Positions 22,355 to 39,496 of a stretch of 57,125 bases of DNA are shown here, in pieces. The notes beneath the pieces were generated by a model. It saw nothing but the letters and a program-made list of their open reading frames with translations, was not told the origin of the DNA and did not search any database. The stretch is taken from the NCBI GenBank assembly GCA_947631245.1, contig CANRKP010000006.1, positions 1 through 57,125 on the forward strand, read 5' to 3'. A program made the position numbers and the translations under genes. This stretch comes from an uncultured Clostridia bacterium. Lineage in GTDB: Bacteria > Bacillota > Clostridia > Oscillospirales > CAG-272. Numbering within the stretch: the stretch's first letter is position 1; every line of letters starts with the position of its first letter.

Positions 22355-22383
22355 TTGACAGCAAAATTTGCCGGTAATATAAT
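22355..22383 (+). promoter_or_regulatory. Consensus promoter of the exonuclease-RecQ-UvrD gene
   Basis: A perfect TTGACA (22355-22360), 17-base spacer and perfect TATAAT (22378-22383), about 38 bases before the start codon. It suggests strong constitutive expression. Confidence 0.8.
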
Positions 22384-22421
22384 GTTTTTATCATAGAGAA
22401 AATGTGTCAGTCGGAGTTTTC

Positions 22422-25400
22422 ATGAAAAAGGAAAATATATCTAATACCGCAAAAATCGTATTTTTTGACACGGAGGTCGGCGTCAAGGACGAGAGAATAC
22501 ACGATATCGGCGCTGTGCGGTATGATGGGGCAACGTTTCATTCCAACTCGCTGCGGGATTTTTTTGACTTTATTTCCGACGCAGAATTCATATGCGGTCA
22601 CAACATCGTCGACTTTGACCTAAAATACATAAAAAAGCATATCGACGCCACGCCTATCGATACGCTTTATCTTTCCGCCCTGCTGTTTCCCGAAAAGCGC
22701 CGTCACAATCTTATAAAGGACGAAAAGAAAACGCCCGACGAGCCGAACAATCCCTTGAGCGACAGCGAGAATGCGAGAAAGCTCTTCCTCAAGGAGCTGG
22801 ACGCCATAACGGCGCTTCCGCAGAAGGTAAAGGAGATCTACTGCCGTCTGCTTTATGACAGGGACGGATACAAAGGCTTCTTTGAATATGCCGGCATAAA
22901 GCCCTGCGCTGTGTCAGATCTTGTGGACTATATAAAGACCGCGTTTGACGGAAGGATATGCTCAAACGCCGACATCGCGGCGCTCGTTGAAGAAAGCCCT
23001 GTAGAACTTGCGTATGCGCTTGCAATGATAGGAACGGACGCCTTTTGCTCCGCGGTCCCGCTGTACCTGCCTCACAAGATCCCGCAAACGGAAAATGTTA
23101 TCCGTCGTCTCCGCGGCACGCCCTGCAAAGACGGCTGCGGCTACTGCCGCAACATGTTCGATATAAACCGTAAGCTGAAGGAAATTTTCGGGAAGCCCTC
23201 CTTTCGCAGCTATGACGGCAAGCCTTTGCAGGAGGACGCCGTCCGCGCCGCTGTCGGCGGCAAATCCCTGCTAGCGGTATTTCCCACTGCCGGCGGCAAA
23301 TCGATAGCGTTCCAGCTTCCCGCGCTGATGGCTTGGCGGGCCACGCGGGGACTGACTGTCGTAATTTCGCCTCTGCAGTCCCTGATGAAGGATCAGGTCG
23401 ACAATTTGGCAAACGAGTACGGCATCACGGAGGCCGTGACGATAAACGGACTTCTCAGCCCCGTTGAACGGGCGGACGCATACGAGCGCGTTTCAAACGG
23501 CACGGCAGCGCTTTTGTATATTTCTCCCGAGCAGCTCCGTTCACCCAGGATCGAACGCCTGCTCATATCGCGCGATATCGCGCGGTTCGTAATAGACGAG
23601 GCGCACTGCTTCTCCGCATGGGGACATGATTTCAGAGTAGATTATCTCTATATCGGCGATTTTATCCGACGGCTTCCGGAACTGAAGAAAGCGAAGGGCG
23701 GCACAATTCCCGTTTCATGCTTCACGGCGACGGCAAAGCAGAATGTCATAGACGATATCAGCAAATATTTCAAGGACAAGATCGACCTCGATCTTGAAAA
23801 ATTTACGACCTTGTCCGAAAGAAAAAATCTTCATTATTCCGTTCTCGACCTCACCCGTGAGGATGAGAATGAGAAAGGCAAAGATGGCAAATATCACGCG
23901 CTCTTAGAGCTATTAAAGCGGAAAAACTGTCCCGCAATAGTGTTTGTTTCAAGGACAAAGCGGACAAAGGAAATAGCCGAAAGACTTACGGGCGACGGAA
24001 TCCCCGCAACGTACTTTAACGGCAAAATGGACAAGGACGAAAAGATCGCAAATCAGGATGCCTTTATTCGCGGCGATGTCGACGTCATTGTCGCCACATC
24101 CGCGTTCGGCATGGGCGTAGACAAAAATGATGTCGGTCTCGTCGTTCACTACGATATATCAGACTCCATCGAAAACTATATACAGGAGGCAGGACGTGCC
24201 GGTCGGAACAGCTCCATCGACGCTGAATGCTGCATCCTCTTCGATGAGAACGACCTCGACGACCATTTTGCCCTTCTGAACAAGACAAAGCTCGGCAAAA
24301 GCGATATCAGGCATGTATGGGGTGCAATAAAGGATATGACGAAGGGCCACGCCTCCGTATGCTGCTCGGCGCTCGAGATCGCGCGGAAAGCAGGTCTCGA
24401 CGACACTTCAAACGATATCGAAACACAAATCACGACGGCGATCGCGGCGCTTGAAGACGCGGGATATATAAAGCGCGGTCACAATGTCCCGCATGTATAT
24501 GCCTCGAGCATACTTGTAAATAATATGACCGAAGCGAGCGCCCGCATTGATGCCTCGCCATTGTTCGGCGAAAAAAAGCGGGAGTCCGCAAAAAAAATTA
24601 TCGGGTCTCTATTGTCAAAAAGAAGCATTTACGCTGAAGACGGCGGCGACGATGCGGAATCGAGGGTTGACTACCTCGCCGACACGCTGCAGCTTGAAAC
24701 CAAAGAGGTCGTCGAAATCATAAACCTGATGCGCCAGGAAGGACTGCTCGCCGACACAAAGGACATGTCCGCGTACATAATGAGCTCGGATTCGCCGAAC
24801 AGATCCGCCCGTATACTTGACAGATTCGCGGAGCTTGAAAAATTTATTTTGTCAAAGCTCGGTGAAGGTGAGATCTCTATGCGTCTCAACTGCCTTAAAG
24901 AGCTAAACGATGCGGCGCTTTCAGCTGGCATCGGCAATTCTTCCGTCAAGGATATCAGGACGATACTGTATTTTCTGACGATAAAGAAATATATCCGCAA
25001 AGACGAGAGCGACGAGGATATTTCCTCGCTTAAAGCGAGCCCCGAGTTTGACCTTCGGCAGGCGGAGAACAGATCTCAGCGCCGGATCGACATATGCCGG
25101 CACATTCTTGACGAGCTTTATGCAAAGGCCTCCGAGGACGACGCCAAGCCGTCGGACAGCGGCGCCGTACCCGTCGTCTTTTCGCTTGTCGAAATGTATA
25201 ATTCGTACATGTCCGTGCCGAGAATGACCATACCGGATCAGGCGCCCGCCACGCAGAGCGACGTCGAGGACGCGCTTTTGTATCTTTCGAAGATCGGGGC
25301 AATGAGGCTTGACGGCGGCTTCCTCGTATTTTACAACAGCATGGAAATACACCGCCTCGTGTCCGGCGGCAGAAGGCAGTACCGGGACGAGGATTACAGC

Positions 25401-27308
25401 AGGCTCGATAAATTCTATAAACAAAAGATCAGGCAGATACATATCGTCGGCGAATACGCGAAGATAATGCTCCGCGACCGCAAAGCGGGCGCCGGATTCG
25501 TCCGCGATTATTTCGGCATGGATTTCAACCGCTTCATATCAAAATATTTCAAGGGAGAACGCGCGAAAGAAATAGGTCGTACCATAACTCCCGAAAAGTA
25601 TGAAAAAATATGCGGCGGACTTTCAGAAAAGCAGTCGGAGATAATAAACGACGCGTCATCTAAATATATCGTCGTCGCGGCAGGTCCCGGAAGCGGAAAG
25701 ACGCGCGTGCTCGTTCACAAACTCGCCTCGCTCTTGCTGCTCGAAGACGTAAAGCCGTCGCAGCTCCTGATGCTCACCTTTTCCCGCGCCGCGGCGACGG
25801 AATTCAAGAAACGTCTTTCCGACCTCATCGGCGGCTACGCAAATTTTGTTGAAATAAAGACGTTTCATTCCTACAGCTTCGACCTGCTCGGGAAGATAGG
25901 AAATATCGAAGAATCGGAAACGGTCGTGCACAGCGCGGCGCAGATGATAGCGAACGGGGACGTTGAGGAGAGCAGGATCACAAAGCAGGTCCTTGTCATT
26001 GACGAGGCGCAGGACATGGACGAGGATGAATTTGAGCTGATACGCGCCCTGATGCTCCGCAACAGCGATATGCGCGTCATCGCTGTCGGCGACGACGATC
26101 AGAATATATATGACTTCCGCGGCTCGGATTCAAAGTACCTTCGCGCTCTTTGCGACGAATACGGCGCGAAAAAGTATGAGATGACGGAAAATTTCAGAAG
26201 CCGTGCAAATATCGTCGCGTTTGCAAACGCTTTCGCACGCTCCATTAAAGACAGGATGAAGTCGGAACCGCTCGAGGTCGTCGACAAAAGACCGGGGACG
26301 GTAATTATCATACGTCACGGCGAAGGAGATCTGAGGGAAGCCGTCGCTGACCACGTTTCAAAGACATATGTCGGATGCAAAGCCTGCGTTCTCACGAGCA
26401 CTAACGAAGAGGCGCTCGGCGTATTCCGCTCGCTTCAAAAACGCGGGCTCCGCGCAAAGCTCATACAGTCTGCTGACAGGTACAACGACGACGTTAGGCT
26501 CTATAACCTCGCAGAGGTAAGATATCTTATCAGGGAAACGGACAGAGAGCTGGGAGAGGCGAAGGATAACGAGATATCAAGTGAAATTTGGCAGCGCGTG
26601 AAAAAGCGCGTGCTGAAAAAATATTCCGGCAGCGCGTCCTCGGAGATACTTCGCAACCTTCTTCGCGATTTCGACGCCGTCTATCCGAAAAAATACCGCT
26701 CCGACCTTGTCGAATTCATCGAGGAGTCTCGCTGTGAGGATTTCTGCGATGAAACCGCGCAGATCTATGTGTCGACGATACACAAATCTAAGGGGCGCGA
26801 ATTTGACGCGGTCTATATGCTGCTCGACAACTTGACTGTTGCAGCCTTGACAGAGGAGGAGAAAAGGCGGCTTTATGTGGGCATGACCCGCGCCGCCTCC
26901 GAGCTGTATATTCATTGCAGGGGAGACCTGTTCTCGCAAATCACCTCTCCCGGAGCCGAATTTATTGACGACGAGACCGTCTATCCCGAAGACAACGAGA
27001 TCGTGATAAGGCTCTCACACAGGGACGTATTTCTCAGTTTTTTCAAGTACAAGAGCGGTTTTGTCAGGCGGCTCCGCTCGGGCGACAAGCTGAAGATCGA
27101 AGACCCGTTTCTCACGGCATGCATCGGCGGGAGAGACATTCGCGTCGTGAAGTTTTCGAAAAGCTTCAAGAATACGCTCGAAGAGCTGAACTCAGCCGGC
27201 TATAAGCCTTACCGCGCGGAGGTGCGATACTCCGTTTTGTGGAAAGGGCAGGACGACGATGATGAAACGACGATCCTGCTGCCCGATCTGTATCTGAAAA
27301 AGGATTAG
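22422..27308 (+). CDS. Exonuclease-RecQ-UvrD helicase fusion
   Basis: A 1628-residue DNA-processing protein joining three enzymes. (1) A DnaQ-like DEDD exonuclease (about 8-140) has FFDTE, ICGHNIVDFD and the downstream NPLSDSENA motif. (2) A RecQ-type SF2 helicase (about 240-620) has Walker A TAGGKS (289-294), DEAH at 392-395 and GMGVDKNDV/QEAGRAGR, preceded by a cysteine group C235, C239, C242. A long helical and winged-helix linker follows. (3) A complete UvrD/PcrA SF1 helicase (about 1060-1570) has GPGSGKT (1088-1094), IDEAQDMDEDE, VGDDDQNIYDF, TENFRS, HKSKGREFD and YVGMTRA. The start at 22422 has GGAG five bases upstream. All motor and nuclease motifs look functional. It is convergent with, and shares a terminator with, the CARF/TIR/RyR gene block, suggesting it belongs to the same defence island. 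Confidence 0.88.
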   Translation: MKKENISNTAKIVFFDTEVGVKDERIHDIGAVRYDGATFHSNSLRDFFDFISDAEFICGHNIVDFDLKYIKKHIDATPIDTLYLSALLFPEKRRHNLIKDEKKTPDEPNNPLSDSENARKLFLKELDAITALPQKVKEIYCRLLYDRDGYKGFFEYAGIKPCAVSDLVDYIKTAFDGRICSNADIAALVEESPVELAYALAMIGTDAFCSAVPLYLPHKIPQTENVIRRLRGTPCKDGCGYCRNMFDINRKLKEIFGKPSFRSYDGKPLQEDAVRAAVGGKSLLAVFPTAGGKSIAFQLPALMAWRATRGLTVVISPLQSLMKDQVDNLANEYGITEAVTINGLLSPVERADAYERVSNGTAALLYISPEQLRSPRIERLLISRDIARFVIDEAHCFSAWGHDFRVDYLYIGDFIRRLPELKKAKGGTIPVSCFTATAKQNVIDDISKYFKDKIDLDLEKFTTLSERKNLHYSVLDLTREDENEKGKDGKYHALLELLKRKNCPAIVFVSRTKRTKEIAERLTGDGIPATYFNGKMDKDEKIANQDAFIRGDVDVIVATSAFGMGVDKNDVGLVVHYDISDSIENYIQEAGRAGRNSSIDAECCILFDENDLDDHFALLNKTKLGKSDIRHVWGAIKDMTKGHASVCCSALEIARKAGLDDTSNDIETQITTAIAALEDAGYIKRGHNVPHVYASSILVNNMTEASARIDASPLFGEKKRESAKKIIGSLLSKRSIYAEDGGDDAESRVDYLADTLQLETKEVVEIINLMRQEGLLADTKDMSAYIMSSDSPNRSARILDRFAELEKFILSKLGEGEISMRLNCLKELNDAALSAGIGNSSVKDIRTILYFLTIKKYIRKDESDEDISSLKASPEFDLRQAENRSQRRIDICRHILDELYAKASEDDAKPSDSGAVPVVFSLVEMYNSYMSVPRMTIPDQAPATQSDVEDALLYLSKIGAMRLDGGFLVFYNSMEIHRLVSGGRRQYRDEDYSRLDKFYKQKIRQIHIVGEYAKIMLRDRKAGAGFVRDYFGMDFNRFISKYFKGERAKEIGRTITPEKYEKICGGLSEKQSEIINDASSKYIVVAAGPGSGKTRVLVHKLASLLLLEDVKPSQLLMLTFSRAAATEFKKRLSDLIGGYANFVEIKTFHSYSFDLLGKIGNIEESETVVHSAAQMIANGDVEESRITKQVLVIDEAQDMDEDEFELIRALMLRNSDMRVIAVGDDDQNIYDFRGSDSKYLRALCDEYGAKKYEMTENFRSRANIVAFANAFARSIKDRMKSEPLEVVDKRPGTVIIIRHGEGDLREAVADHVSKTYVGCKACVLTSTNEEALGVFRSLQKRGLRAKLIQSADRYNDDVRLYNLAEVRYLIRETDRELGEAKDNEISSEIWQRVKKRVLKKYSGSASSEILRNLLRDFDAVYPKKYRSDLVEFIEESRCEDFCDETAQIYVSTIHKSKGREFDAVYMLLDNLTVAALTEEEKRRLYVGMTRAASELYIHCRGDLFSQITSPGAEFIDDETVYPEDNEIVIRLSHRDVFLSFFKYKSGFVRRLRSGDKLKIEDPFLTACIGGRDIRVVKFSKSFKNTLEELNSAGYKPYRAEVRYSVLWKGQDDDDETTILLPDLYLKKD

Positions 27309-27331
27309 CCCAATCGCCGTGTGCGCCGCAT

Positions 27332-27369
27332 AAAAAATGCCTCGGAAATATTTTCCGGGGCATTTTTTT
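27332..27369. terminator. Bidirectional intrinsic terminator
   Basis: AAAAAATGCC and GGCATTTTTTT arms with an inner CGGAAATATTTTCCG stem, between the convergent helicase gene and the RyR gene. Confidence 0.85.
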
Positions 27370-27377
27370 CGGCGGAC

Positions 27378-27674
27378 CTATTCTTCTTTTGCCTTTTCTA
27401 TTTTATATCCGAGCGCGAGCAGAAGCTTAAGGGTATTTATTGCCGTGCGGCGGTCATATTCCTTTTCCGATTCGGGCAGATCGGAATAAGGTACGAGACA
27501 CGGCGTCTTTTTCAGTTTGTCATCGCGCTCGTCGCCGTATGTCCACCCCTCCGATATCCTTCCCGCAGCCCAAATGTCGTGGACGTTTTCCGCCATTTTC
27601 TCTGTCAGTTCAAAAAGGTCGTCCGGAAGAGATATTTCTTTTGTATCAAGCGGTTTCGGGTCATATTTTCTCAT
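27378..27674 (-). CDS. Stand-alone RyR-domain protein
   Basis: A 98-residue protein that is almost entirely a single RyR domain, the module repeated in animal ryanodine receptors. The core reads VHDIWAAGRISEGWTYG, RDDKLKKTPCLVPYSDLPE and YDRRTAINTLKLLLALGYKI. In bacteria RyR domains occur in signalling and conflict gene clusters and are suspected of ligand sensing; the ligand here is unknown. It is the last of five minus-strand genes and lies 56 bases after the membrane RyR protein, with which it may interact. Its Shine-Dalgarno site is weak. Confidence 0.82.
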   Translation of the reverse strand: MRKYDPKPLDTKEISLPDDLFELTEKMAENVHDIWAAGRISEGWTYGDERDDKLKKTPCLVPYSDLPESEKEYDRRTAINTLKLLLALGYKIEKAKEE

Positions 27675-27699
27675 AATAACATCATCTCGTTTCTTTTTT

Positions 27700-27735
27700 T
27701 TAATTTAAAATATCACGTTAATTTAAAATATCACG
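27700..27735. repeat. 18-base tandem repeat
   Basis: Two exact copies of TTAATTTAAAATATCACG (27700-27717 and 27718-27735). The second contains the stop codon of the membrane RyR gene, so a short duplication has copied the end of that gene into the intergenic space. Confidence 0.8.
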
Positions 27736-29821
27736 CTCTGTACGCGGGTTCCTTGTCCTTGTACTTCTCAAGCTCCGGCAGGTCATGCCACGATATCAGG
27801 TCGTTATGGAGCTTTGCCCTGTCATTTCGCTTCGGCGAATATCTGTACCCCTGTGTCCTCATATATACGTTCCATCTCATGTGCTCTGTTACAGATGCCT
27901 CGGCACAGTGTTCGCAGAGGCAGTTTGAAGGATGACGCGGACGCTCGTCGAGACTGTTTATTTTAATGTACTTTCTTGCGTCCGCCAAAAATTTCTCATG
28001 CACCGCGCGCGCAACAGACGATTTTCTGTAATATTCGTAATTCGAATAAGTGTCTGCCTTTTCAATAATAGCGTCTGCCAGCGCGGCTTTGTCGTCTTTG
28101 TTTTTTGCTCCGTCCCGTCTCAGCCAATCGATGTGATACCGAATGGCGCTGTATTCTATATCTTTTTCTTCCTTGATCCTGTCATAGGAATATTGGTCGC
28201 CGAGGTTCCCGATGAATTCTACCTGAACGGAGTCGCCGCGATAATTCACTATCCCGCCGCCGTTTTCCTTGCAGCTGAGATTTGCGGCCTTTTTATCGTC
28301 GTAAACGACGGAATATATGAGCGGGCGCGCAGACCGGCATGAACCCTCGTCGGTTATTTCGTTCACGTTTACTCTGTCAAACACGGACCTCAGCATGACG
28401 GCAGCGTCTATATTTTTATCGTCATCTCCGAGAGAAACTATCGCCAACTGCGTGCGCTTCAATCTGTCCCTGTCAGGGCTCTCCGGCTCAAACAATCTGT
28501 CAAAATCTGTCGAGAAGCAGTCCACGCCGTCAAAAAATCTGATATCGTAATTTGCATCTCCCATCTCGTTCCTGACAAACGACTTTTTGCCCGGGTCCGT
28601 TATGATCTCCGGCCATTCGTGACCAAGCGCTTTTATTATATTTTCACTATTGCCGCCTCCCGCCGACGAAGCATCGATGACATTGACCTCGAGCCTGTAT
28701 CCGAAGACCTGAAACAAAGAGAGCGCCTGCTTCAAAAACTCCTTCCCGCAGCTTCCCATCCCGAGAATGGTGACGGAAACCGTCTTTGCGTCGTTGTCCT
28801 TGAAAACTGCGTCGACCACCTCTTTCCTCGTGAGCACCCGCCGCACAAGCATCTCGACGCTGTCGAGCCGTCGGACACGGAACACCGGACCGTCCGCCTT
28901 TTCTTCATTGCCTCTGTATGACGTATTCTCCAAAAATGCCTCGGGGTCGTCTCTTATGCTCTCGGTCAGCGCTTTGTCGAGAGTATATTCTCCCTTGTCA
29001 ATGGAGTCCATGATGTATCCCGCGCTCGGCTTGTCTGAGTAGAGGAAGATCGATATCGGTCTTTTTTTGCATTCGTTCTTGTATTCCTGCGTCAGCCTTA
29101 TAGCCTGTTCCACATTTTCGGATTCGTTTTCTCCGATCAGAAAGAACTCCGCTCTTCCCGACTTGCGCTTCACATCAAGCCTCGTTATATCTTCTTTCAA
29201 AAGTATCGCTTTTATATCCTTTGCCCGCAGGATTATCTCGTAGTCGCCTTCCTCGTCCCGCTCGAAAACGTCGGAAAAAACTATGACCGGTCTTTTGATG
29301 CTTTCATCTTTGAAAATACTCTCGGCAAGAGTTATTGACTTTTCGTTAAGCTCGGAAAAAATATAGAACGGGCGCCCGTCGTGAAAGCGGAACCAAAACT
29401 TATTCCGGAAATTTCCGAAAAGCATGATGATGTTTTTGAATGTCAGTATCGGAGCCGTAACATACAAAACCCCCGCGAGCACAGAAAAGCAGGCGCCAAG
29501 CGGCCTCCCAAGCTCGCTTACGGAGCTTATTACGATGTCAAATTCCCCGTCGAGGACAAATACGCGGAACGTGTTGTGCAGCGCATTTATAATTATGAGA
29601 CATGCGTTCGAAAATATGCCAAAACCGCCGGCGCTGTATTGCGCGTAATATATCGGGATAAAAATTAAAAACGTCGAAATGCCGACTCCCAGCATTGATA
29701 CCAGCCGTTTGTTCCGTTTTACTGTCCCGAAGTCGAAAAACTTCAAAACTATCGTAAGAACAAGGACCGCAAGCGACACTGCCCCAAAAATTATATATGC
29801 ATATTTTATCTCTTCACCCAT
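27731..29821 (-). CDS. Membrane protein with RCK/TrkA-like Rossmann domains and a C-terminal RyR-like domain
   Basis: A 696-residue protein. Four hydrophobic segments (about 7-28, 40-62, 67-87, 108-136) anchor it in the membrane. The cytoplasmic part has a first nucleotide-binding-like unit (about 150-265) and a second with the dinucleotide motif GMGSCG (354-359), as in TrkA/RCK domains. The last 70 residues carry a Cys trio (C634, C636, C639) and a RyR-like segment (MRWNVYMRTQGYRYSPKRND, then LHNDLISWHDLPELEKYKD). There is no K+ selectivity filter (TVGYG-like) that I can see, so it is not an ordinary K+ channel. The start at 29821 has AGGAG nine bases upstream; an ATG at 29830 touches that site. 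It lies 61 bases after the AAA+ protease chimera. Likely a membrane sensor or effector controlled by a nucleotide. Confidence 0.72.
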   Translation of the reverse strand: MGEEIKYAYIIFGAVSLAVLVLTIVLKFFDFGTVKRNKRLVSMLGVGISTFLIFIPIYYAQYSAGGFGIFSNACLIIINALHNTFRVFVLDGEFDIVISSVSELGRPLGACFSVLAGVLYVTAPILTFKNIIMLFGNFRNKFWFRFHDGRPFYIFSELNEKSITLAESIFKDESIKRPVIVFSDVFERDEEGDYEIILRAKDIKAILLKEDITRLDVKRKSGRAEFFLIGENESENVEQAIRLTQEYKNECKKRPISIFLYSDKPSAGYIMDSIDKGEYTLDKALTESIRDDPEAFLENTSYRGNEEKADGPVFRVRRLDSVEMLVRRVLTRKEVVDAVFKDNDAKTVSVTILGMGSCGKEFLKQALSLFQVFGYRLEVNVIDASSAGGGNSENIIKALGHEWPEIITDPGKKSFVRNEMGDANYDIRFFDGVDCFSTDFDRLFEPESPDRDRLKRTQLAIVSLGDDDKNIDAAVMLRSVFDRVNVNEITDEGSCRSARPLIYSVVYDDKKAANLSCKENGGGIVNYRGDSVQVEFIGNLGDQYSYDRIKEEKDIEYSAIRYHIDWLRRDGAKNKDDKAALADAIIEKADTYSNYEYYRKSSVARAVHEKFLADARKYIKINSLDERPRHPSNCLCEHCAEASVTEHMRWNVYMRTQGYRYSPKRNDRAKLHNDLISWHDLPELEKYKDKEPAYRA

Positions 29822-29882
29822 TGTTTTCATCTCCTGATCTTATGACGCCGAATGCGGCGTCCGCAGCTTTTCTACGATTTTT

Positions 29883-32800
29883 TCAACTTACGCTGTTCTG
29901 AAAGATCTCTTTGACGGCCTCTGCCGACAGATGGTTTTCCGCCAGCAGTCTTTCGACCAAAGCATCTACAGCCGGTCTGTTCTCCTCTATGAGCCTGACA
30001 GCATTTTTCATTTCTTCGGAAAGTATCGCGTTTACGCCGTCGCAGACCTTTGACGAGAGCTCGCCCGTCCTTGCCGCCTGCCCGTCTATCACGGCAAGAC
30101 CGAAATCCTCGTCCATTCCGTATGTGCATATGATCTGCCGCGCAGTTTGTGTCGCCGCGGCAAGATCTCCGCTCGCGCCGGTCGATATCCCGTCCCGCTC
30201 CCCGTAATATACTATCTCGGCGGCGCGCCCCCCGAGCGCCGTTCTTATGCTTGAGAGCAGCTCGTCCTTCGTATATATGTTCTTGTCCTCGCCGTCGCCG
30301 TGCTGCATATAACCGCCGTGACTGCCTCTTGCGACTACCGTTATGTACGAGGGCACCTCTCCGCTCTGCCAGCATATGAACGCGTGCCCCGCCTCATGCC
30401 TTGCAACGCGCTCAAGCTGAGAGGGATCCCATTTTTTTGTCTCACCTCCGTTGAAGGTCTCGAACGCCTCATCGAATATCGCGTCGGTGACCTTGAAGCT
30501 GCCGTCCCTTATAGCGGCGCGCAATGCAAGCTCCAGCACGGATTCAAGCTCGGCAAGACTCATTCCCGTCGACCTGACGGCGATATTTCTGATCTTATCC
30601 TCCGATACTTCAAATGCCGGCTTTTCCGAGAGCTTCATGCGAATATATCTGATGCGCTCGCCGCGGGTGGGAAGGTCGATATAGACCCTCCTGTCAAAGC
30701 GGCGCAAAAATGCCTGGTCAAGGCTCTTTTTCCCGCCCGGCTCAACGTCGAAATTTGTAGCCGCAAGCACGAAGACAGGCTTTGCCGCATCTTTTCTGAA
30801 ACCGTCCATCTCGGTCAGAAACGCGGTGAGCGTCGCCTCGGCGCCGTCGGAATTGTCCCCGCCGCGCCTTTCCTTTGCTATTGCGTCTATCTCATCCACG
30901 AACAGAACGGATGGCGCGTACTTGCGGGCGGTGCGGAACAGCTCATGCACTTTGTCGGGTCCCTCTCCGACGTACTTTTTCAAAAACTGATTTCCCTCGG
31001 CTGTTATGAACGTCATGCCCGACTCGCTCGCCATTGCTTTGGCAAGCATCGTTTTTCCGGTGCCGGGAGGACCGTACAAAAGAACTCCCTTCGGCGCGCT
31101 GACGCCCGTGCCCATATATTTTTTGGGATTTTTCAGATACTCGACGAAATACTTCAGCTCCCTTTTCGCGTCCTCGGCGCCGATAACATCGTCAAATCGC
31201 ACGTTGGGTTTTGAAACGACGCTGAGAATGTTTTTTGAATCCTCCGCGTCGACGGCGACCGTCATTTCGAAGTCGAACAGCTTTATTTCCGCCGTTTTGC
31301 CGCCGTCCGTCACCGCCTGCGCGGTCTCAAACGTAACGAGCTTGTTCGCTTTCGCAAGCGCCTCCATGCTCTTTTGCTGATGGAGCTTTTCGTTTACCGT
31401 TCTTATCTCGTCCGCAAAGCCGTCACCGCCGTCCGTGAGCGTGATAACTCCCATTACCCCCTGACGTATGTATGAGAGCCTCGCCTCCGCGCCGAGCTCG
31501 AACTCCGGCGTCTGCAAAAGGCAGATCGGCATATCGGGACGCACCTCCCTTACATACCGGAAAAGCTTCCTCGCTTCGGACTCTGTATCTTCAATGTTCA
31601 GGTACCGGATCTCTCCGCTTATCCCATATGAAGGATCGAGCAGGACGAAGCCCGGGTCGCGGTCGCGCAGCGCATTTTTTGCGGCGTTTATATCTTTCGC
31701 GTAAACAAAGCGTGCCGACGGCGCGTTTCTTACGCACATGTCATAGACCTGTTCGGATGAGGTCACGAGAACTTCATACGTCTCTTCGTTTTCGAAAAGC
31801 TCGCAAAGCTCCTTGTTTTCGGTCGGAAGCTCAAGTGATATCCTGATTTTTTCGAGATCTTGTATGCCTGTTTCGACTTTTTCGGAATCGAGCAGCCTGA
31901 AAAGCTCAAACAGCTCGTCGTTGAAAAACGCTTCCGCCCTGCTCCTCACCGTCCTCGCGTCGGCAGCGCCGCCCTCGGCAAACAAAAGCGCCGGATAAAC
32001 ACCCTCATCGACCTCGACGCTTATCCCTATCTCCCTCTCTAAATCGGACGCGTGTCTCAAAACCTCGCGCTTCGCGATCTCACAAAGGCTGTGAGCCGTG
32101 ATGTGATTGAACATGACGACATTGCCGGACGCAAAGCGGGAGCAGATCGCGGCGGGGAAATAAGCGATGCCGCTCTTCGGATCGACGTCGTTTTGCAGCG
32201 CCTTCAATATGACCTTTCTCGTAACACCCGAGAAATCCGTCACGTCGGTGTCTTCGTAAAGCTGTTTGCCCACGTTCGTCGTAAAAATGAGGATCGTGTC
32301 CGTAAAAGACACCTCTTCATCCGTAAAATTATCGCGCAGTCTGCCGGCGTCGAGTATCTGCAGAAACAGATGGATGACATTGATGTGCGCCTTTTCGATC
32401 TCGTCGAAAAGAATCACGCAGTCGGGATTTCTGTTGACAAAAGAGGTGACATTTCCCTCCTTGCTGTTTCTGTATACGTTGTCAGAGCCGGCGAATTCGA
32501 TATTGGACTCCCTGTACGAATATTCGCTCATATCAAAGCGCATAAACGGGCGCTCTAAAGCTTCCGCCGCTTTTTCTGCCAAAAATGTTTTTCCGACGCC
32601 GGGAGGTCCCGCAAAGAGGAACGTGGCGCGCGGGCGCTTTCTGTTTTTATCCGTCATTGCCAAAAGCTCGGACTGAAAATATCCGGTCGTAAACACTCTT
32701 ATCGCGTTGTCCTGCCCGTATATCTCACCCGAAAGCCTGTCGTATATGCTTTTGACACTTCCCGTCAGCTTTGCGACCGCGTCCTTTTTTTCGGCGCTGC

Positions 32801-33440
32801 TTTGATGCGCGGCATGCCCGGTCTCGTCCGCATCCGCGCTTTCGCCATCAGCGTCATCGGCATCGTCAGCGTCGTCATGGTCTCCGAACTCCGACGGGCT
32901 GTCCTCCAATATTTTATCGAGCTGTTCCCCGATGCTTTCCAGCAGCGACTCCGTTCCGTCTATTACCTCGCCGATCTTTTTTTCTTCCTCTTCCGCCTCC
33001 TTCTCGGCGAAAGCCTTTATATATTCGTTCGGGTCGTTCAATATGCACGATAAAAGCTCATCTGCGGTAAGGCAGTCGGCTCCCCTCTCCTTTGCCGCCT
33101 CACTTGCCTTGTAAACGCGCCTCTGCATATATATACCGTCGGCAAAAGCGTCGTTCCGCTTCCCGTTCTCGTCGATGCATTTTGCCATATACGCCCTGAC
33201 GTTTTTGAAATCGGGGGCCGAAAAAACATAGTGAGCGGAAAGAATGTCCGAAAGCGCTTTTTTCTCGCGGACGGCAGACCTTATCCCCGCCTCGCCCGTC
33301 ACGGTGTCGATAACGGCGACGATATAACGTTCCGCCGTCATGCCCGTCACAGGTAAATCGGCGTCATCCCCGCCCGTTCCCAACCTCTTTGCATACTCTA
33401 AAATTTTTTCGAGCAGCGCACTGTTTTTGATATCTGCCAT
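29883..33440 (-). CDS. Chimeric Clp-type ATPase / receiver-like / FtsH-type AAA+ metalloprotease
   Basis: An 1185-residue cytoplasmic protein with an unusual domain string. Residues 1-180 are helical and Clp-N-like, followed by a very acidic linker (188-206, Asp/Ala-rich). A ClpA/B-type AAA+ module has Walker A GPPGVGKT (278-285) and Walker B ILFDEIEK (343-350). A receiver-like alpha/beta domain (about 555-670) has LLDPSYG at the phospho-acceptor position (Asp602) but no clear partner lysine. An FtsH-type AAA+ module has GPPGTGKT (790-797) and LFVDEID (846-852), followed by an M41 peptidase with HEAGH (1015-1019) and the third zinc ligand Asp1092 (GASGDLAAA). The membrane segments of normal FtsH are missing. 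The start at 33440 follows GGAG by six bases and suits the promoter at 33482-33511; in-frame ATGs at 33452 and 33467 are alternatives. It should be an ATP-driven protease with two motors. Confidence 0.85.
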   Translation of the reverse strand: MADIKNSALLEKILEYAKRLGTGGDDADLPVTGMTAERYIVAVIDTVTGEAGIRSAVREKKALSDILSAHYVFSAPDFKNVRAYMAKCIDENGKRNDAFADGIYMQRRVYKASEAAKERGADCLTADELLSCILNDPNEYIKAFAEKEAEEEEKKIGEVIDGTESLLESIGEQLDKILEDSPSEFGDHDDADDADDADGESADADETGHAAHQSSAEKKDAVAKLTGSVKSIYDRLSGEIYGQDNAIRVFTTGYFQSELLAMTDKNRKRPRATFLFAGPPGVGKTFLAEKAAEALERPFMRFDMSEYSYRESNIEFAGSDNVYRNSKEGNVTSFVNRNPDCVILFDEIEKAHINVIHLFLQILDAGRLRDNFTDEEVSFTDTILIFTTNVGKQLYEDTDVTDFSGVTRKVILKALQNDVDPKSGIAYFPAAICSRFASGNVVMFNHITAHSLCEIAKREVLRHASDLEREIGISVEVDEGVYPALLFAEGGAADARTVRSRAEAFFNDELFELFRLLDSEKVETGIQDLEKIRISLELPTENKELCELFENEETYEVLVTSSEQVYDMCVRNAPSARFVYAKDINAAKNALRDRDPGFVLLDPSYGISGEIRYLNIEDTESEARKLFRYVREVRPDMPICLLQTPEFELGAEARLSYIRQGVMGVITLTDGGDGFADEIRTVNEKLHQQKSMEALAKANKLVTFETAQAVTDGGKTAEIKLFDFEMTVAVDAEDSKNILSVVSKPNVRFDDVIGAEDAKRELKYFVEYLKNPKKYMGTGVSAPKGVLLYGPPGTGKTMLAKAMASESGMTFITAEGNQFLKKYVGEGPDKVHELFRTARKYAPSVLFVDEIDAIAKERRGGDNSDGAEATLTAFLTEMDGFRKDAAKPVFVLAATNFDVEPGGKKSLDQAFLRRFDRRVYIDLPTRGERIRYIRMKLSEKPAFEVSEDKIRNIAVRSTGMSLAELESVLELALRAAIRDGSFKVTDAIFDEAFETFNGGETKKWDPSQLERVARHEAGHAFICWQSGEVPSYITVVARGSHGGYMQHGDGEDKNIYTKDELLSSIRTALGGRAAEIVYYGERDGISTGASGDLAAATQTARQIICTYGMDEDFGLAVIDGQAARTGELSSKVCDGVNAILSEEMKNAVRLIEENRPAVDALVERLLAENHLSAEAVKEIFQNSVS

Positions 33441-33481
33441 CTCATTCTCCATTCCGCCGCGGAACATATATGTCCTGCTTT

Positions 33482-33511
33482 ATTATACTTCGCGGCATAA
33501 AGGGCTGTCAA
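33482..33511 (-). promoter_or_regulatory. Internal promoter before the AAA+ protease chimera
   Basis: Minus-strand TTGACA (33511-33506), 18-base spacer and TATAAT (33487-33482), both hexamers perfect. It allows the protease chimera and the two RyR genes to be transcribed separately from the CARF and TIR genes. A hairpin with ACCGCAA / TTGCGGT arms lies just upstream (about 33513-33542). Confidence 0.75.
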
Positions 33512-33584
33512 GGGACCGCAACGCCGAAAGACCTTGCGGTTCTTCTCCATGAGGATAATCCGCGGTATTTATGTTTTTTCTTTT

Positions 33585-36500
33585 TCACCGTTCGAGCAGC
33601 TTGCGGCATATGTCGAGCATCTCTCTATACTCGCTGTTGTCGGGATAAGAGGTCGCAAGCGATTCGCATATCTCCCGTGCCGCGAGAATATGCTCCCTGT
33701 CGATCGCAGGATACTCGAGTAAGCCCAGTCTGTAATGCGCGACGGCTACATCGTGATAGCTTTGTTCTGTTCTCTCCTCTTCCGCTGCGGCAGAGGCGAG
33801 ATCCAGGGCCTCCTCGTAATATTTGCGCGCATCGTCAGTCCGCCCCTCTTTTTTTGCCATGGTTCCGAGACGGTCGCAGCTGATCAAAATATACGGGCGG
33901 ACCCACGCCTTTTTTGCATCCTCGAGCCGTCTTCCGATCTTGAGAGCCTTTTCAAAGAATATGCGCGCCTCGTCACGGCGGTCGTCTTTATTTAAAATGT
34001 CGCCGAGTTCGCTGTAGTATTTGACCACATCGCAGTTCACTCCCGGATCTTTTGTCTCCTCCGCGAGCGCAATGGCTCCCCTGAGCGCCTGCTCGAAATA
34101 TCCGCGCGCCGCGTATATGCGCCCCTGTCTTACGGCAACCTCCCCGAGGTTCCCGTAACATAAAAACAAATCCCTGCGCGCCTTCGGTCTGTGCGTCTCC
34201 TTTTCGATTTCCTCCCTCAGCTTGAGCAGCCTCTCGTAATAATTTCTCGCGTCGTCGAGCCGTGCTTCCTCTTTGGCAATGTCGCCGAGCGTATTATAGC
34301 CGGCTGCCAGCATAGAGCGTTCTTTGAGCGTTTTTGCCTCGCCGATAAGAGATACCATTATCTCATACGACTTTTTAAGATATCCGCGCCTGTCGTCTTT
34401 CCTGCCCCGGACCCTTGCAATTTCGCTGAGTTTGTAAAGGCTTTCTGACAGAACGTCCATAACATCGCGGTCCCGATCCTCCACCGAGAGCTTTAAGGCT
34501 ATATCATGAGCCCTCTCATAATATTCGTGCGCCTCGTCTATAAAAAGATCTCCAAACGCTATGTCACCGAGTCTGATGCAGCCTCTCAAAAGGTCGAGCC
34601 GCGCCGCCTTTGTCTTTGTCTCTTCCTCGATCTTTTCCTTTATCTCCAGCGACTTTCTAAAATAGTCCCGCACCGTTTCGAGCGGTCCCAGCTTCGCGAA
34701 TAGACCGCCGAGCCTGTCATATATCGCGGCAAGCTCGCGGCGCGCCTCGGCGGTGTTCAGCTCCTTTTCAATCTCTGTTCTTAGCTTCAGCGCCTCTTCA
34801 TACGATTCGAGCGTCTCGTCATACAGGTGTTCTCCAAAATCTCTGTCGCCGAGTTTTTCATAGCTTCGAGCCAAATCAAGGCGCGCACTTACCGTTTTAG
34901 TCCTTTCAGCGAGATTTTTCCTTATAGCAAGCGCCTTTTCGTAATACCCGCGCAAGTCGTCTGTCGTCTGTTCCTTTTCGGCAAGGGCGCCGAGCTTTTC
35001 ATAGCTTGCGGCAAGGGCGCGGGAAACGGCTGCCATCTTCGTCTCTTCCGCTGTCTTCAGCCTTATCGCAAGCGCCTTTTTATAATATCCGCGCGCCTTC
35101 TCTGTCTTTTGCTCCGAACTGCAAATATCGCCGAGCTTTTCGCAGCTCTGCGCGGGACCAAGGCGCGCCTCGACAGTTTCCGCATATTTCGCGATCTTTT
35201 CCCTTATCACGAGCGCTTTTTCGTAATACCCGCGCGCCTCCTCTGCCTTTTGCTCCGACATGCAGATGTCTCCGAACGTGTCATAGCTACGGGCAAGGTC
35301 AAGCCGCGCCTCGACAGTTTCCGCCTTTCCTGCAAGCCTCCGCCTTATTCCGAGCGCCTTTTCGTAATATCCGCGCGCCTCGTCTGTCTTTTGCTCCGAG
35401 CTGCAAATATCGCCGAGCTTTTCACAGCTCATGGCGAGCTCGCGGTGCGCCCTGACCGCATCTGTAATATCCGCAAGCTGCTCCCTTATCACAAGTGCCT
35501 TTTCATAATATCCGCGCGCCTCGCCGCCCTTTTTCTCCGAGCTGCAAATATCGCCAAGCTTTTCAAATATTTTTGCCTGCATGACCTCGGCGTCGGCATC
35601 TTTTTTCTCATCCGCAAGCGGGGATATAATGCCGAGCGCCCGAGAATAATATTTCTCCGCACCGCAAAGCTCCCCCTCCGCAAGCGCAATGTCGCCGAGC
35701 CTTTCATAAATGCCGTATGCCGACCCTTCCGTTTCTGCCGACATGGCGGACGTCTTATGCGCTCTCATATAAAACCTCATCGCGTCAGCGAGCCTCCCCG
35801 CGTCACGCGCCGCATCTCCGAGCTTGAAAAGTATCTTCGCCCGATACGCCCGATCGTCCGAGGCGGATAAAGCCCGTCTGTAATACCTCTCCGCCGTTAA
35901 AAGCTTACCCTCCGCAAAAGCTATATCGCCGAGCTTTTCGGAGCTCACGGCAAAGCAACGGCGCGAGTTTTCCTTTTCCTCCCCATCCAATGTCAAGGGG
36001 ACCGTATCCCATGCCCTCTTGTAATACTCAAGCGCCGCCGAGAGCTTGCCTTCCTCTTTGTTTATGTTGCCGAGCATGATGCATCTGTCAAACAATTCGA
36101 GGCACGCTTCGGGCATTTTTGTCTCCTCCGCGAGCGCTAATGCTATCCCGAACGCCTTCTCATAATATCCGCGCGCGTCGGCGAGCTGTCCGGTAATATA
36201 GAAGATCTCGCCAAGTCTGCAATATGTTATGGACAGATCGCGGCGTGCTCCCGCCCAGCCGACGTTCTTCACGAGCGCCTCGTCTGTTTTCAGCGCCTCC
36301 TCATAATATTCCCGCGCGTCGACGAGCCTCCCCATCCTCTTGTATATGTCGCCGAGCATAGCGCGGTTTTTCGACATAAAGTGGCGCGCTTCCGGCGTTT
36401 TTGTCTCCTCCGCGAGCACGGAGGCTGTTTTGAGCGCCTCCTCCCCATATTCGCGCGCCTTTTCGTACTCCCCCGCCGACGCGGCTGTGTCCCTCAGCCT

Positions 36501-38006
36501 ACCATAGCTGACAGCAAGGCTGCGTCGCATTTTCGGTGAATTTTCCTCCTCCGCGAGCCCTTTTGTTATATTCAACGCATGCTCATAATGTTTTCGCGCT
36601 TCTTCGGGGTCATGTTCGTTATTCGCTATCCGCCCGAGCCCGTCGTAAACGGAGGCCAAATGCCGCCTCACATGGCGCGCGTCTGTCCTGCCCATGATAT
36701 CTTCAAAAATTTCCGCCGCTTTTTTACAGCACGCCCGGGCTTCCGGATTTTCTTTAAGTTCGAGCCGGAATTTGCCCAAATTCAAAAGCTCGTATCCAAA
36801 GCGCGTTCCGTCGTCGTCGCTCTCGCTCTCTTTGTAACGCGCCTCCCACAGCGCCGCGAGCTTCTCCTGCCACTCTATCGCGCGCCGGCGGTCTCTCACG
36901 ACGCCGTCGCCGCTCCGGTACATATCGACGAGCTTTTTCATTGCATCGGCGGAGCCCGCCTCCGCCGCGCCCGTTATCAGCCCGAGCGCGCGGTCGGTGT
37001 CGACTTCGACGTCTATGCCAGTAAGATACGCGATCCCTATCATGAAATCGTGCTCGGGATCTCTGTCTCCCTTGCGCTTCAAATCATTTTCAAGCGCAGC
37101 CGAAAGCGCCGCCTCCAGCTTCGGCGCGTCGTTCGCGTCCGTGCAGGCGGGGATGCCGACATATTTTTTCTCGAGCTCTCCCCTGTCGGTTTTGACTATC
37201 TCCGCCGGAAGTATCGCTTTCCCCTTCTCCCTCGCCATCGGATATTCTTCCGTCATGACATAGTTCCCGTCTTCAAGCAGGCTCGGCGTCACCGTTAGCG
37301 CGAAAAGACTGCTCTTCTCGATAGCGGCCTCTATCTTGCCGTTGAACCCCTCTCCAGGATTCAAAAATTCGTCGTACCATATCGCAACGTCGCGGCAGGA
37401 TTTGTTTTTATGTATGAGCCTCATCAGCTCCTTCGCATGCACGCGGTCTTTCTTTCGGTAGCTGAGGAATATGTATGCATCAAACTCTGCCCTCACCTTT
37501 TCGGCAAGCTCGTCCCCGACGAGCACGGACGAAAGAAAGTTCTCGAGCTTTGTTTTAAATGGGATCGCCGTTTCGTCGTTCCCGTGCTTTTCCAAAAACT
37601 GAAGATCGCGAAATTTGAGGTCGTAAAGAGCGGCAAGCCCGTCTTCCTGCATAAGCGGAAGCACGGGGATACGGATCTCATTCTTCTGCATGAAATCGCA
37701 GAGGTCGAGCGCAAAAGACGGGCGAGTCAAAAGCTTTGCCGTCACGGGGATAACGACAAGGCGCATCTCGGTAAGGACGTCCGCAAATTCTGAAAGGCAC
37801 ATCTCTTTACGCTCCGCGTCGTATTCCGCATATTCCGCCGCGTCGCTCTTGTCGATATAGTATATCGCACAGTTCTGCGACGCGAAGATATCGTTTGCCG
37901 TCTCGTCGAAGTATACGTCAAAATCGTCCGGATGGCACACGAAAAGCACCGCCTGCTTCCCGGTCGGCTCCTCTCCGTAGCGCGTCTTATGCAATAACTT
38001 AAACAT
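33585..38006 (-). CDS. TIR-TPR protein
   Basis: A 1473-residue protein. Residues 16-125 resemble a TIR-like alpha/beta fold (AVLFVCHPDDFDVYFDE, LVVIPVTAKLL). Residues 174-285 are a recognisable TIR domain: FDAYIFLSYRKKD, AIWYDEFLNPGEGF, IEAAIEKSSLFALTVTPSLL and NYVMTEEYPMA, where Glu254 fits the NAD-glycohydrolase glutamate. A Sel1-like stretch (about 310-390) follows, then about 22 tetratricopeptide units up to the C-terminus. Four central units repeat at exactly 47 residues. AGGAG lies six bases before the start. By analogy with TIR-TPR defence proteins the TPR array would recognise a trigger or partner, and TIR would consume NAD or make a signalling nucleotide; this is inferred. It lies 106 bases after the CARF nuclease, without a promoter of its own that I can see. 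Confidence 0.85.
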   Translation of the reverse strand: MFKLLHKTRYGEEPTGKQAVLFVCHPDDFDVYFDETANDIFASQNCAIYYIDKSDAAEYAEYDAERKEMCLSEFADVLTEMRLVVIPVTAKLLTRPSFALDLCDFMQKNEIRIPVLPLMQEDGLAALYDLKFRDLQFLEKHGNDETAIPFKTKLENFLSSVLVGDELAEKVRAEFDAYIFLSYRKKDRVHAKELMRLIHKNKSCRDVAIWYDEFLNPGEGFNGKIEAAIEKSSLFALTVTPSLLEDGNYVMTEEYPMAREKGKAILPAEIVKTDRGELEKKYVGIPACTDANDAPKLEAALSAALENDLKRKGDRDPEHDFMIGIAYLTGIDVEVDTDRALGLITGAAEAGSADAMKKLVDMYRSGDGVVRDRRRAIEWQEKLAALWEARYKESESDDDGTRFGYELLNLGKFRLELKENPEARACCKKAAEIFEDIMGRTDARHVRRHLASVYDGLGRIANNEHDPEEARKHYEHALNITKGLAEEENSPKMRRSLAVSYGRLRDTAASAGEYEKAREYGEEALKTASVLAEETKTPEARHFMSKNRAMLGDIYKRMGRLVDAREYYEEALKTDEALVKNVGWAGARRDLSITYCRLGEIFYITGQLADARGYYEKAFGIALALAEETKMPEACLELFDRCIMLGNINKEEGKLSAALEYYKRAWDTVPLTLDGEEKENSRRCFAVSSEKLGDIAFAEGKLLTAERYYRRALSASDDRAYRAKILFKLGDAARDAGRLADAMRFYMRAHKTSAMSAETEGSAYGIYERLGDIALAEGELCGAEKYYSRALGIISPLADEKKDADAEVMQAKIFEKLGDICSSEKKGGEARGYYEKALVIREQLADITDAVRAHRELAMSCEKLGDICSSEQKTDEARGYYEKALGIRRRLAGKAETVEARLDLARSYDTFGDICMSEQKAEEARGYYEKALVIREKIAKYAETVEARLGPAQSCEKLGDICSSEQKTEKARGYYKKALAIRLKTAEETKMAAVSRALAASYEKLGALAEKEQTTDDLRGYYEKALAIRKNLAERTKTVSARLDLARSYEKLGDRDFGEHLYDETLESYEEALKLRTEIEKELNTAEARRELAAIYDRLGGLFAKLGPLETVRDYFRKSLEIKEKIEEETKTKAARLDLLRGCIRLGDIAFGDLFIDEAHEYYERAHDIALKLSVEDRDRDVMDVLSESLYKLSEIARVRGRKDDRRGYLKKSYEIMVSLIGEAKTLKERSMLAAGYNTLGDIAKEEARLDDARNYYERLLKLREEIEKETHRPKARRDLFLCYGNLGEVAVRQGRIYAARGYFEQALRGAIALAEETKDPGVNCDVVKYYSELGDILNKDDRRDEARIFFEKALKIGRRLEDAKKAWVRPYILISCDRLGTMAKKEGRTDDARKYYEEALDLASAAAEEERTEQSYHDVAVAHYRLGLLEYPAIDREHILAAREICESLATSYPDNSEYREMLDICRKLLER
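35090..35560 (-). repeat. Tandem 141-base coding repeats in the TPR array
   Basis: The segment encoding KLGDICSSEQKTDEARGYYE recurs four times; the (G)CTCCG landmark on the plus strand lies at 35111, 35252, 35393 and 35534, an exact 141-base (47-codon) period. The units are much more alike than the rest of the array, pointing to recent duplication. Confidence 0.8.
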
Positions 38007-38112
38007 GCCCTTCTCCTTTTAGTGCAATCATCGTCCCCATGTTCCCATCGGAGCTGCGCGGCAAACGCAAAAGGCCGAAGCAAAAAGCCCGAAATTACCT
38101 TTTCCTACTATA

Positions 38113-39387
38113 TTAATTCGACCAAAGCGACCGAACCACTCTGTTTAAATCGTCGTCGTTCATTTCCGTAAGATCCTTATAAATTCCGCTGCAATTAGAC
38201 CCCTCTATAAGTCGAATGCCCATATCCCCCGCGCGCTGTCTGATATGATTGGACGCACCCGAATCATCAAGTGATGTAGCCACAAGAACTTTTTTTGCAT
38301 ATTTTCCGCCAAACCGCGCTGCGACCGTATTCAATTTATAGAGCTCATCTTTATTTATGTATCCGTTTTTGCAGGAAACAAAGACCGGAACCATGCCGTG
38401 CATCATCATGACATCTATTTCATTTGAGGTGTCGCAGTCGTACTTGTCCGTGCCGATATCCCCGTCCCAGTCAATAAAAACACCGTTCATGACATCGTTG
38501 TATGTTTTTTCGCCGTCCTTCTCTTCGGCATCCAGCGCCGCGAGAAACATCTTCATTTCAAGAACCTTTCCGGCAACAGTAAGACAGTGCTTTACCTGTA
38601 TGTTTTTATATGTAATAGAAAACAAATCATCATTACACAAATAGGTCTCAAGCAATCCCTCTCGATATAATCCGTCAATTATCCTCCGGATCGCGACAAA
38701 CCTGCCTCCGCTTTGCTCGACCGCTCTTTTGAGGCAGTCCGTCTGAACACTGACAGTCAGATCGTCCGAGCACCCCGACAGCTTGTAAGCAGCCTCAAAA
38801 ACGCCGATCTGTGTGTTCCAAAGCCTTGCGTCACGGCGGCAGATGTCCCACATGGCATTAATATCGTTCTTAAATTCATCGTTCATATCCCAGCGATATG
38901 TCGCATCTTTTCTTTGGTCGTCGTAAATGACGTCGCCGCCGTAAATCCTAACATTTTCTTCGATCGAAAGCACCGGAGCATCATTTTCCATGATAGTTTG
39001 TCCGTCTTGGTCTCCGTCGATGATAGTGCCGTTCCGGATATTGAACCTGTGCATCTGAATATTACGGTTCTTGTATTTTTCAAAAACGATGCCTGTCGCG
39101 ACAAGATAAAGGTCTTCTCCCCCCGTCAAATCAAAAACGCAGTCATCATGCGCTTCAACGATTGAGGAGAGAGCATCTATAATGGTCTGCATCCTATTTT
39201 TATTAACAGTACGGCAAATAAACTCTGCGGTAACACCTCTGGATTCTAAAATAGTTTTGTAGCGTTCCGCGTGCTTTTGCATCAGCCTCAGCTTGTCTCC
39301 GAGAAGAATGACCCGCTCCGGCGCTTTTGTAAGGCTGGAACAAACATTTTCAATTGCATCTTTTTCAAAAAATTCTACCAGTGTCAT
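38113..39387 (-). CDS. CARF-domain nuclease, Card1/Can2 (DUF1887) type
   Basis: A 424-residue protein matching the architecture of the cyclic-oligoadenylate-activated effectors Card1 and Can2. The N-terminal CARF domain (about 1-150) opens with a VILLGDK strand and has the nucleotide-binding loop DLTGGED (86-92). A winged-helix-like middle follows (about 190-260), then a PD-(D/E)xK nuclease fold (about 270-400) with Glu275, NEID (Glu321, Asp323) and VSCKNG (Lys338). The usual ExK glutamate is a serine here, which I believe occurs in this subfamily. AAAGGA lies six bases before the start. No CRISPR array, Cas10 or other cas gene is in the window, so the activating ligand must come from elsewhere or from a different enzyme. 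It is the first gene of the block. Confidence 0.8.
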   Translation of the reverse strand: MTLVEFFEKDAIENVCSSLTKAPERVILLGDKLRLMQKHAERYKTILESRGVTAEFICRTVNKNRMQTIIDALSSIVEAHDDCVFDLTGGEDLYLVATGIVFEKYKNRNIQMHRFNIRNGTIIDGDQDGQTIMENDAPVLSIEENVRIYGGDVIYDDQRKDATYRWDMNDEFKNDINAMWDICRRDARLWNTQIGVFEAAYKLSGCSDDLTVSVQTDCLKRAVEQSGGRFVAIRRIIDGLYREGLLETYLCNDDLFSITYKNIQVKHCLTVAGKVLEMKMFLAALDAEEKDGEKTYNDVMNGVFIDWDGDIGTDKYDCDTSNEIDVMMMHGMVPVFVSCKNGYINKDELYKLNTVAARFGGKYAKKVLVATSLDDSGASNHIRQRAGDMGIRLIEGSNCSGIYKDLTEMNDDDLNRVVRSLWSN

Positions 39388-39398
39388 TTTAATTCCTT

Positions 39399-39410
39399 TC
39401 GTTTAAACGA
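39399..39410. promoter_or_regulatory. Palindrome next to the ribosome binding site of the CARF gene
   Basis: TCGTTTAAACGA is a perfect 12-base palindrome directly upstream of AAAGGA. It could be an operator or a small hairpin affecting translation; its role is a guess. Confidence 0.35.
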
Positions 39411-39496
39411 TAGCGTAAAAAACGCCCGCGCCCGCCCGTGCAATTTCCGCCCGACGGCAAAAAAGCACATCGGAGAAAATTTATAAGAAACACAAC

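What the first reader, a model, noticed from the sequence alone, without database searches (positions are those of the whole stretch)
22422..27308. DEDD exonuclease, RecQ and UvrD helicase in one 1628-residue chain
Two helicases of different superfamilies plus a nuclease, all with intact motifs, form a RecBCD/AddAB-like toolkit in a single protein, driven by a perfect consensus promoter. It is convergent with the CARF/TIR block, sharing a terminator, which suggests a joint island that may process invader DNA.
Basis: partly seen in the sequence, partly recalled or inferred. Interest (0 to 1): 0.68.

Follow-up and report, generated by a model that had tools for sequence, protein, structure and literature searches.

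The report
Exonuclease–RecQ–UvrD fusion on mobile island
This is a real, intact 1,628-residue bacterial DNA-processing protein that joins a DNA-chewing domain to two DNA-unwinding motors; it belongs to a widespread but patchy family for which I found no published description, it sits on an inserted island beside immune-like genes, and it may well degrade invading DNA, though that has not been tested.

Summary
The ORF is real (22422-27308, 1,628 aa). It carries an N-terminal DEDD-type exonuclease domain, a four-cysteine linker, a RecQ (SF2) core, a middle region, a compact UvrD (SF1A) core and a C-terminal beta-rich domain. 71 full-length homologues in at least nine phyla keep this order, with the motor residues checked invariant. 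The family is accessory: 2/97 relatives, 28/391 Clostridia, 40/201 Bacteroidaceae, single copy. The perfect promoter and shared bidirectional terminator are confirmed. Two corrections. The exonuclease's ExoIII histidine is replaced by asparagine family-wide, so "intact motifs" is not strictly true. RecBCD/AddAB is the wrong template: no RecB-type nuclease was detected and both motor families normally run 3'->5'; human WRN plus a second motor is closer. The joint island holds physically: a sister genome lacks about 22438-39810 at the same site. No functional joint system is supported: the CARF/AAA/RyR genes recur in six relatives without this gene, and no partner recurs across 88 loci. Nearest neighbours are modestly enriched in defence-type genes. 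Best guess: a stand-alone helicase-exonuclease acting on foreign or aberrant DNA, probably anti-mobile-element defence; not shown experimentally.

The parts
22355..22383 (+). sigma-70 promoter TTGACA-17-TATAAT, 12/12 consensus; a similar perfect promoter lies in the sister genome's empty site, so it probably predates the island
22422..27308 (+). recQ-uvrD fusion gene, 1,628 aa
22452..22800 (+). DEDD-type exonuclease domain (about aa 11-126): D16, E18, D66, D114; ExoIII His replaced by Asn109
22959..23147 (+). four-cysteine module C180, C235, C239, C242 (aa 180-242), 68-70 of 71 homologues; probable metal site (ligand role inferred)
23145..24280 (+). RecQ-type SF2 helicase core (aa 242-620)
24281..25590 (+). 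middle region (aa 620-1056), mostly helical; no Pfam match
25591..26922 (+). UvrD-type SF1A helicase core (aa 1057-1500), shorter than UvrD (compact 1B/2B regions, inferred)
26923..27305 (+). C-terminal beta-rich domain (aa 1501-1628), no assigned family
27332..27370 (.). bidirectional intrinsic terminator shared by recQ-uvrD and the convergent block
22438..39810 (.). island absent from the sister genome G001 between the enolase and CAP-protein genes (boundaries approximate)

Best explanation
A horizontally spread, stand-alone helicase-exonuclease. Shown: domain order, conserved motor residues and DEDD carboxylates, patchy single-copy distribution, location on an inserted island, no obligate partner gene. 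Inferred: one or both motors (RecQ and compact UvrD, families that move 3'->5') load at DNA ends, gaps or forks and separate the strands, while the DEDD domain, held next to the RecQ motor by the four-cysteine module, removes nucleotides from the exposed 3' end. It would thus work like the Werner protein (exonuclease plus RecQ) with a second SF1A motor, and its most likely role is degrading or blocking replication of incoming mobile DNA (phage, plasmid, conjugative element).
For: 71 full-length homologues keep all domains in order; D16/E18/D66 71/71, D114 70/71, and the RecQ (K293, DEAH 392-395, Q588, R592, R595) and UvrD (K1093, D1194/E1195, Q1227, R1259, R1490) positions checked 71/71, so all three centres are under selection. 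Models (pTM 0.83 and 0.79) match RecQ (1oyy, Z 27.0) and UvrD (4c2t, Z 39.5). Patchy: 2/97, 28/391, 40/201. Empty site in the sister genome; island genes not found in the fetched enolase-downstream stretches of two further congeners. Nearest neighbours with strong PADLOC hits (E<=1e-45): roughly 8-14 of 107 against 1-3 of 94 for plain RecQ loci, including PDC-S41 directly upstream in two loci (4-bp overlap in L062) and a type I restriction gene next to L051; an hsdSMR cluster lies about 1 kb away in Allochromatium. Some members are on plasmids or ICE-like backbones or next to serine recombinases.
Against: No experiment on any member was found. Context is heterogeneous: many neighbours are metabolic or regulatory, and no partner recurs across 88 loci. 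The control set is small and from other taxa. The ExoIII His is absent, so nuclease activity could be weak or lost. No member covering 80% of the query occurs in 50,697 phage records; this neither supports nor excludes defence.
Confidence: 0.5

Rival explanations
1. Accessory genome-maintenance enzyme: a horizontally spread WRN-like repair protein that processes stalled forks or breaks of the host (or of its carrier element) and is not directed at invaders.
For: RecQ, UvrD and DEDD families are repair enzymes (established knowledge); the WRN architecture is similar; many loci have ordinary metabolic neighbours, and the homologue in G015 lies beside an oxidoreductase gene.
Against: Patchy single-copy presence, location on an inserted island, and neighbours richer in PADLOC hits than plain RecQ loci are more typical of conflict systems.
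Confidence: 0.27
2. Mobile-element fitness factor: it serves conjugative or integrative elements in their own replication, or attacks rival elements.
For: Members lie on plasmids, beside the same ICE-like backbone in three Bacteroidales loci and beside serine recombinases in four loci; one sits next to parAB.
Against: No transfer or replication genes were recognised in the window's flanks and none recur across the loci; the ICE-like backbone lies at variable distance and orientation.
Confidence: 0.15
3. A joint system with the convergent CARF-TIR-AAA-RyR block: the RecQ-UvrD protein and the signalling block act together.
For: They share a terminator and lie in one segment absent from the sister genome.
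Against: The CARF/AAA/RyR genes occur in six other relatives that lack this gene, and the AAA gene in a second copy in the same genome; among the fetched family loci no homologue of the CARF, TIR or TrkA-RyR proteins was found, and AAA matches were partial and weak.
Confidence: 0.05

Closest known systems
Werner syndrome protein (WRN)
   Same: N-terminal DEDD exonuclease followed by a RecQ helicase in one chain; RecQ core matches WRN helicase structures (6yhr, Z 23.6)
   Different: WRN exonuclease is DEDDy, here Asn at ExoIII; no RQC or HRDC match; extra UvrD motor and C-terminal domain; bacterial, accessory
RecBCD / AddAB / AdnAB helicase-nucleases
   Same: UvrD-like SF1A motor plus nuclease for dsDNA ends; the motor matches AddA, RecB and AdnB
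   Different: single chain, DEDD instead of RecB-type nuclease, second motor is RecQ (SF2); no RecB-nuclease match
Gabija GajB, DpdF, PsyrT helicases of defence systems
   Same: UvrD or RecQ helicase cores match PADLOC models
   Different: matches are confined to the helicase cores; no recurring partner gene; far longer, different architecture
Exonuclease-fused DinG (e.g. S. aureus DinG, PMC12345164)
   Same: N-terminal 3'-5' exonuclease fused to an SF2 helicase in bacteria
   Different: the helicase is DinG/XPD type with 5'->3' polarity; no RecQ or UvrD
'RecQ family ATP-dependent DNA helicase' as annotated by NCBI on plasmids
   Same: the same family, annotated under this generic name
   Different: the name covers only the RecQ part; no function assigned

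Membership tests
RecQ family helicase | RecQ helicase core motifs | tested here: met
   NCBIfam recQ_fam 252.6 bits over cut-off 219.8; Walker and DEAH residues 71/71
RecQ family helicase | RecQ zinc-binding, RQC and HRDC domains | tested here: inconclusive
   no Pfam match at 1e-3 on the full protein nor up to E 10 on aa 620-1065; structural matches extend past the core
UvrD/Rep SF1A helicase | SF1A motifs and fold | tested here: met
   Pfam UvrD-helicase 5.1e-34; 4c2t Z 39.5, rmsd 5.2, 446 aligned
DEDDh / DEDDy exonuclease | four DEDD carboxylates | tested here: met
   D16, E18, D66 71/71; D114 70/71
DEDDh / DEDDy exonuclease | ExoIII His (H-x4-D) or Tyr (Y-x3-D) | tested here: not met
   position -5 is Asn in 67/71; position -4 is Asn/Asp in 67/71
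WRN | exonuclease followed by RecQ in one chain | tested here: met
WRN | DEDDy tyrosine | tested here: not met
RecBCD/AddAB | RecB-family PD-(D/E)XK nuclease domain | tested here: not met
   no such Pfam match at 1e-3 in the full protein; an unrecognised divergent domain is not excluded
RecBCD/AddAB | Chi recognition and dsDNA-end resection | not testable with these tools
   needs biochemistry
Gabija (GajAB) | partner GajA OLD-type nuclease | tested here: not met
   no OLD-type match among the window neighbours scanned and no recurring partner in 88 loci
Anti-phage defence gene | phage protection | not testable with these tools
   needs plaque assays
Anti-phage defence gene | defence-enriched neighbourhood | tested here: inconclusive
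   roughly 8-14/107 nearest neighbours vs 1-3/94 control at PADLOC E<=1e-45; small, taxonomically unmatched control, counts uncertain

The most novel reading that the evidence does not exclude
An unrecognised single-gene anti-mobile-DNA defence system: a Werner-like exonuclease-RecQ protein with a second SF1A motor and a DEDD-type centre using Asn instead of His/Tyr, spread through many phyla, that selectively destroys replicating foreign DNA.
Probability: 0.4. Interest if true: 0.68.

Novelty: new variant of a known kind. Interest (0 to 1): 0.5.

Why it matters
A family spread over at least nine phyla, annotated generically as 'RecQ helicase', is really a conserved three-enzyme machine whose function no paper I found describes. 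It pairs two motors of different superfamilies with a WRN-like exonuclease in one chain, and keeps an unusual nuclease motif family-wide. If it restricts foreign DNA, it would add a one-gene defence system carried by about a fifth of sampled Bacteroidaceae species; if not, it is a bacterial model of the WRN architecture.

Tried and rejected
(1) A conserved partner gene: clustering of 1,360 flanking ORFs from 88 loci gave only generic families (SDR, ABC, response regulators) and near-copies of one ICE-like backbone. (2) Functional coupling with the CARF/TIR block: disfavoured. (3) The C-terminal domain as HIRAN or another known family, suggested by its strand pattern: no Pfam match worth naming up to E 10 and only chance-level PDB sequence matches; left open, not shown to be new. 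(4) Fold matches for the DEDD domain: Foldseek lists were filled by RecQ and UvrD; not tested on its own. (5) A phage origin: family members lie in 13 IMG/VR contigs, but at least one (L117) carries the same ICE-like backbone as two Bacteroidales plasmid records, so virus calls there are doubtful; no phage record held 80% of the query. (7) The promoter as a genome-wide repeat: only one match in the genome. (8) Paper searches found no description of the architecture; the library is open-access only.

Full report
THE OBSERVATION. The ORF at 22422-27308 is open and encodes 1,628 aa. The ATG at 22422 has a GGAG 5 nt upstream and starts about 40 nt after a perfect TTGACA-17-TATAAT promoter (22355-22383, 12/12). 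Pfam recognises a DEAD/Helicase_C pair (268-596) and a UvrD pair (1068-1500). NCBIfam recQ_fam passes its curated cut-off. The N-terminal exonuclease is weaker by library search but clear by conservation.

THE FAMILY. tblastn found full-length homologues at 50-57% identity in Bacteroidota and Clostridia and at about 30-35% in Proteobacteria, Campylobacterota and Cyanobacteria. I aligned 71 full-length members. D16, E18 and D66 are present in 71/71 and D114 in 70/71. The residue that should be His (DEDDh) or Tyr (DEDDy) in ExoIII is Asn109 in 67/71, in an N-[N/D]-P-x-x-D motif. Four cysteines (180, 235, 239, 242) between the exonuclease and RecQ are kept in 68-70 of 71; a metal site is inferred. 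All helicase positions checked are 71/71. The tree has two main groups, a Bacteroidota/Clostridia (plus Campylobacterota) one and a mainly proteobacterial one with single Actinomycetota, Cyanobacteriota, Acidobacteriota and Verrucomicrobiota members (a quick tree with long branches, so details are unsure).

STRUCTURE. AlphaFold2 models of aa 1-1065 (pTM 0.83) and 930-1628 (pTM 0.79) match RecQ (1oyy, Z 27.0, rmsd 2.5, 384 aligned) and UvrD (4c2t, Z 39.5, rmsd 5.2, 446 aligned). The UvrD core is about 440 residues against about 645 in UvrD, so the 1B/2B regions are probably reduced (inferred). The DEDD and C-terminal domains were not searched alone.

DISTRIBUTION. Full-length protein in 2 of 97 relatives; the N-terminal profile in 28 of 391 Clostridia, four of these only as weak matches, and in 40 of 201 Bacteroidaceae, mostly in frames of about 1,600 aa and single copy. 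That is an accessory gene, not housekeeping. Eight of 72,556 plasmid records and none of 50,697 phage records hold 80% of the query in one place.

THE ISLAND. A sister genome (G001, about 95% DNA identity here) aligns up to 22211, has a short similarity to 22354-22437, and resumes at 39811. About 17.4 kb, from the first codons of this gene to just before the CAP-protein gene, is missing there. tblastn found no island proteins in the fetched enolase-downstream stretches of G005 and G006, so a gain in this lineage is more parsimonious than repeated loss, although those stretches were not mapped gene by gene. G001's empty site also has a perfect TTGACA-17-TATAAT at the matching place, so the promoter probably predates the island; the similarity is 73% over 89 bases, and this is inferred. 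Island GC is about 0.52 against about 0.58 upstream.

THE NEIGHBOURS. The convergent strand carries CARF-PDDEXK (38113-39387), TIR-TPR (33585-38006), a ClpA-like plus FtsH/M41 AAA protein (29883-33467), a membrane protein with a weak RyR match (27731-29830) and a 98-aa RyR-domain protein (27378-27674, PF02026 2.5e-37). The terminator at 27332-27370 serves both directions. The AAA protein occurs in six other relatives, four of them with RyR genes and three with CARF nearby, none with this gene, and again at G000:C15. The two halves of the island are therefore separable modules.

DEFENCE ASSOCIATION. Across 88 loci no partner gene recurs. Among 107 nearest neighbours, strong PADLOC matches (E<=1e-45, sigma-54 activators excluded) amount to roughly 8-14 proteins, against 1-3 of 94 around plain RecQ genes. 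The tool tallies families, not proteins, so these counts are ranges, and the control is small and from other taxa. PDC-S41 lies directly upstream in L062 (4-bp overlap) and L056; a type I restriction gene adjoins L051; an hsdSMR cluster lies about 1 kb from the Allochromatium copy and a type I-D CRISPR locus about 4 kb from the Thiothrix copy. This is suggestive only.

MECHANISM. RecQ and UvrD enzymes move 3'->5' (established for these families). With a DEDD 3'->5' exonuclease in the same chain the simplest model is WRN-like: unwinding at an end, gap or fork coupled to removal of 3' nucleotides, with a second motor for processivity or strand separation. Conservation of all three centres is shown; coupling, polarity, substrate and biological role are inferred. 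RecBCD/AddAB is a poor template because no RecB-type nuclease was detected and motors of opposite polarity are not expected; AdnAB, with two UvrD-like motors, is nearer but again uses RecB-type nucleases.

VERDICT. It is a new variant of a known kind (helicase-nuclease) in a family that I found undescribed in open-access literature, with defence as the most likely but unproven role.

Noticed in passing
window 27378-39387, - strand; also L178, L179, L181, L183, L184: Recurrent gene set of CARF-PDDEXK nuclease, ClpA/FtsH-M41 AAA protein, TrkA/RyR-like membrane protein and RyR-domain protein (here also TIR-TPR) in several relatives in varying combinations; looks like a signalling conflict system independent of recQ-uvrD.
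   Followed up: partly
G000:C15:2131-5601: Second copy of the ClpA/FtsH-M41 AAA protein (about 64% identity) elsewhere in the same genome.
   Followed up: no
window 27378-27674, - strand: 98-aa RyR-domain ORF (PF02026, 2.5e-37) below the usual 100-aa listing cut-off.
   Followed up: yes
window 42678-56316: A second segment of the window that does not align to the sister genome G001, flanked by alignable DNA; holds aldo/keto reductases, a TetR regulator, GH39 and DUF362 genes.
   Followed up: no
L027, L033, L117: The same ICE-like backbone (ParA, SSB and small proteins) lies near the recQ-uvrD gene in three Bacteroidales loci at different distances and orientations.
   Followed up: partly
L161:123-1313: N-terminal part of a Cas9-like protein on the same contig as the G015 homologue, about 15 kb away (recognised by eye, not searched).
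   Followed up: no
L056, L062: PDC-S41 candidate defence protein (PADLOC) directly upstream of recQ-uvrD in two distant Bacteroidota.
   Followed up: no
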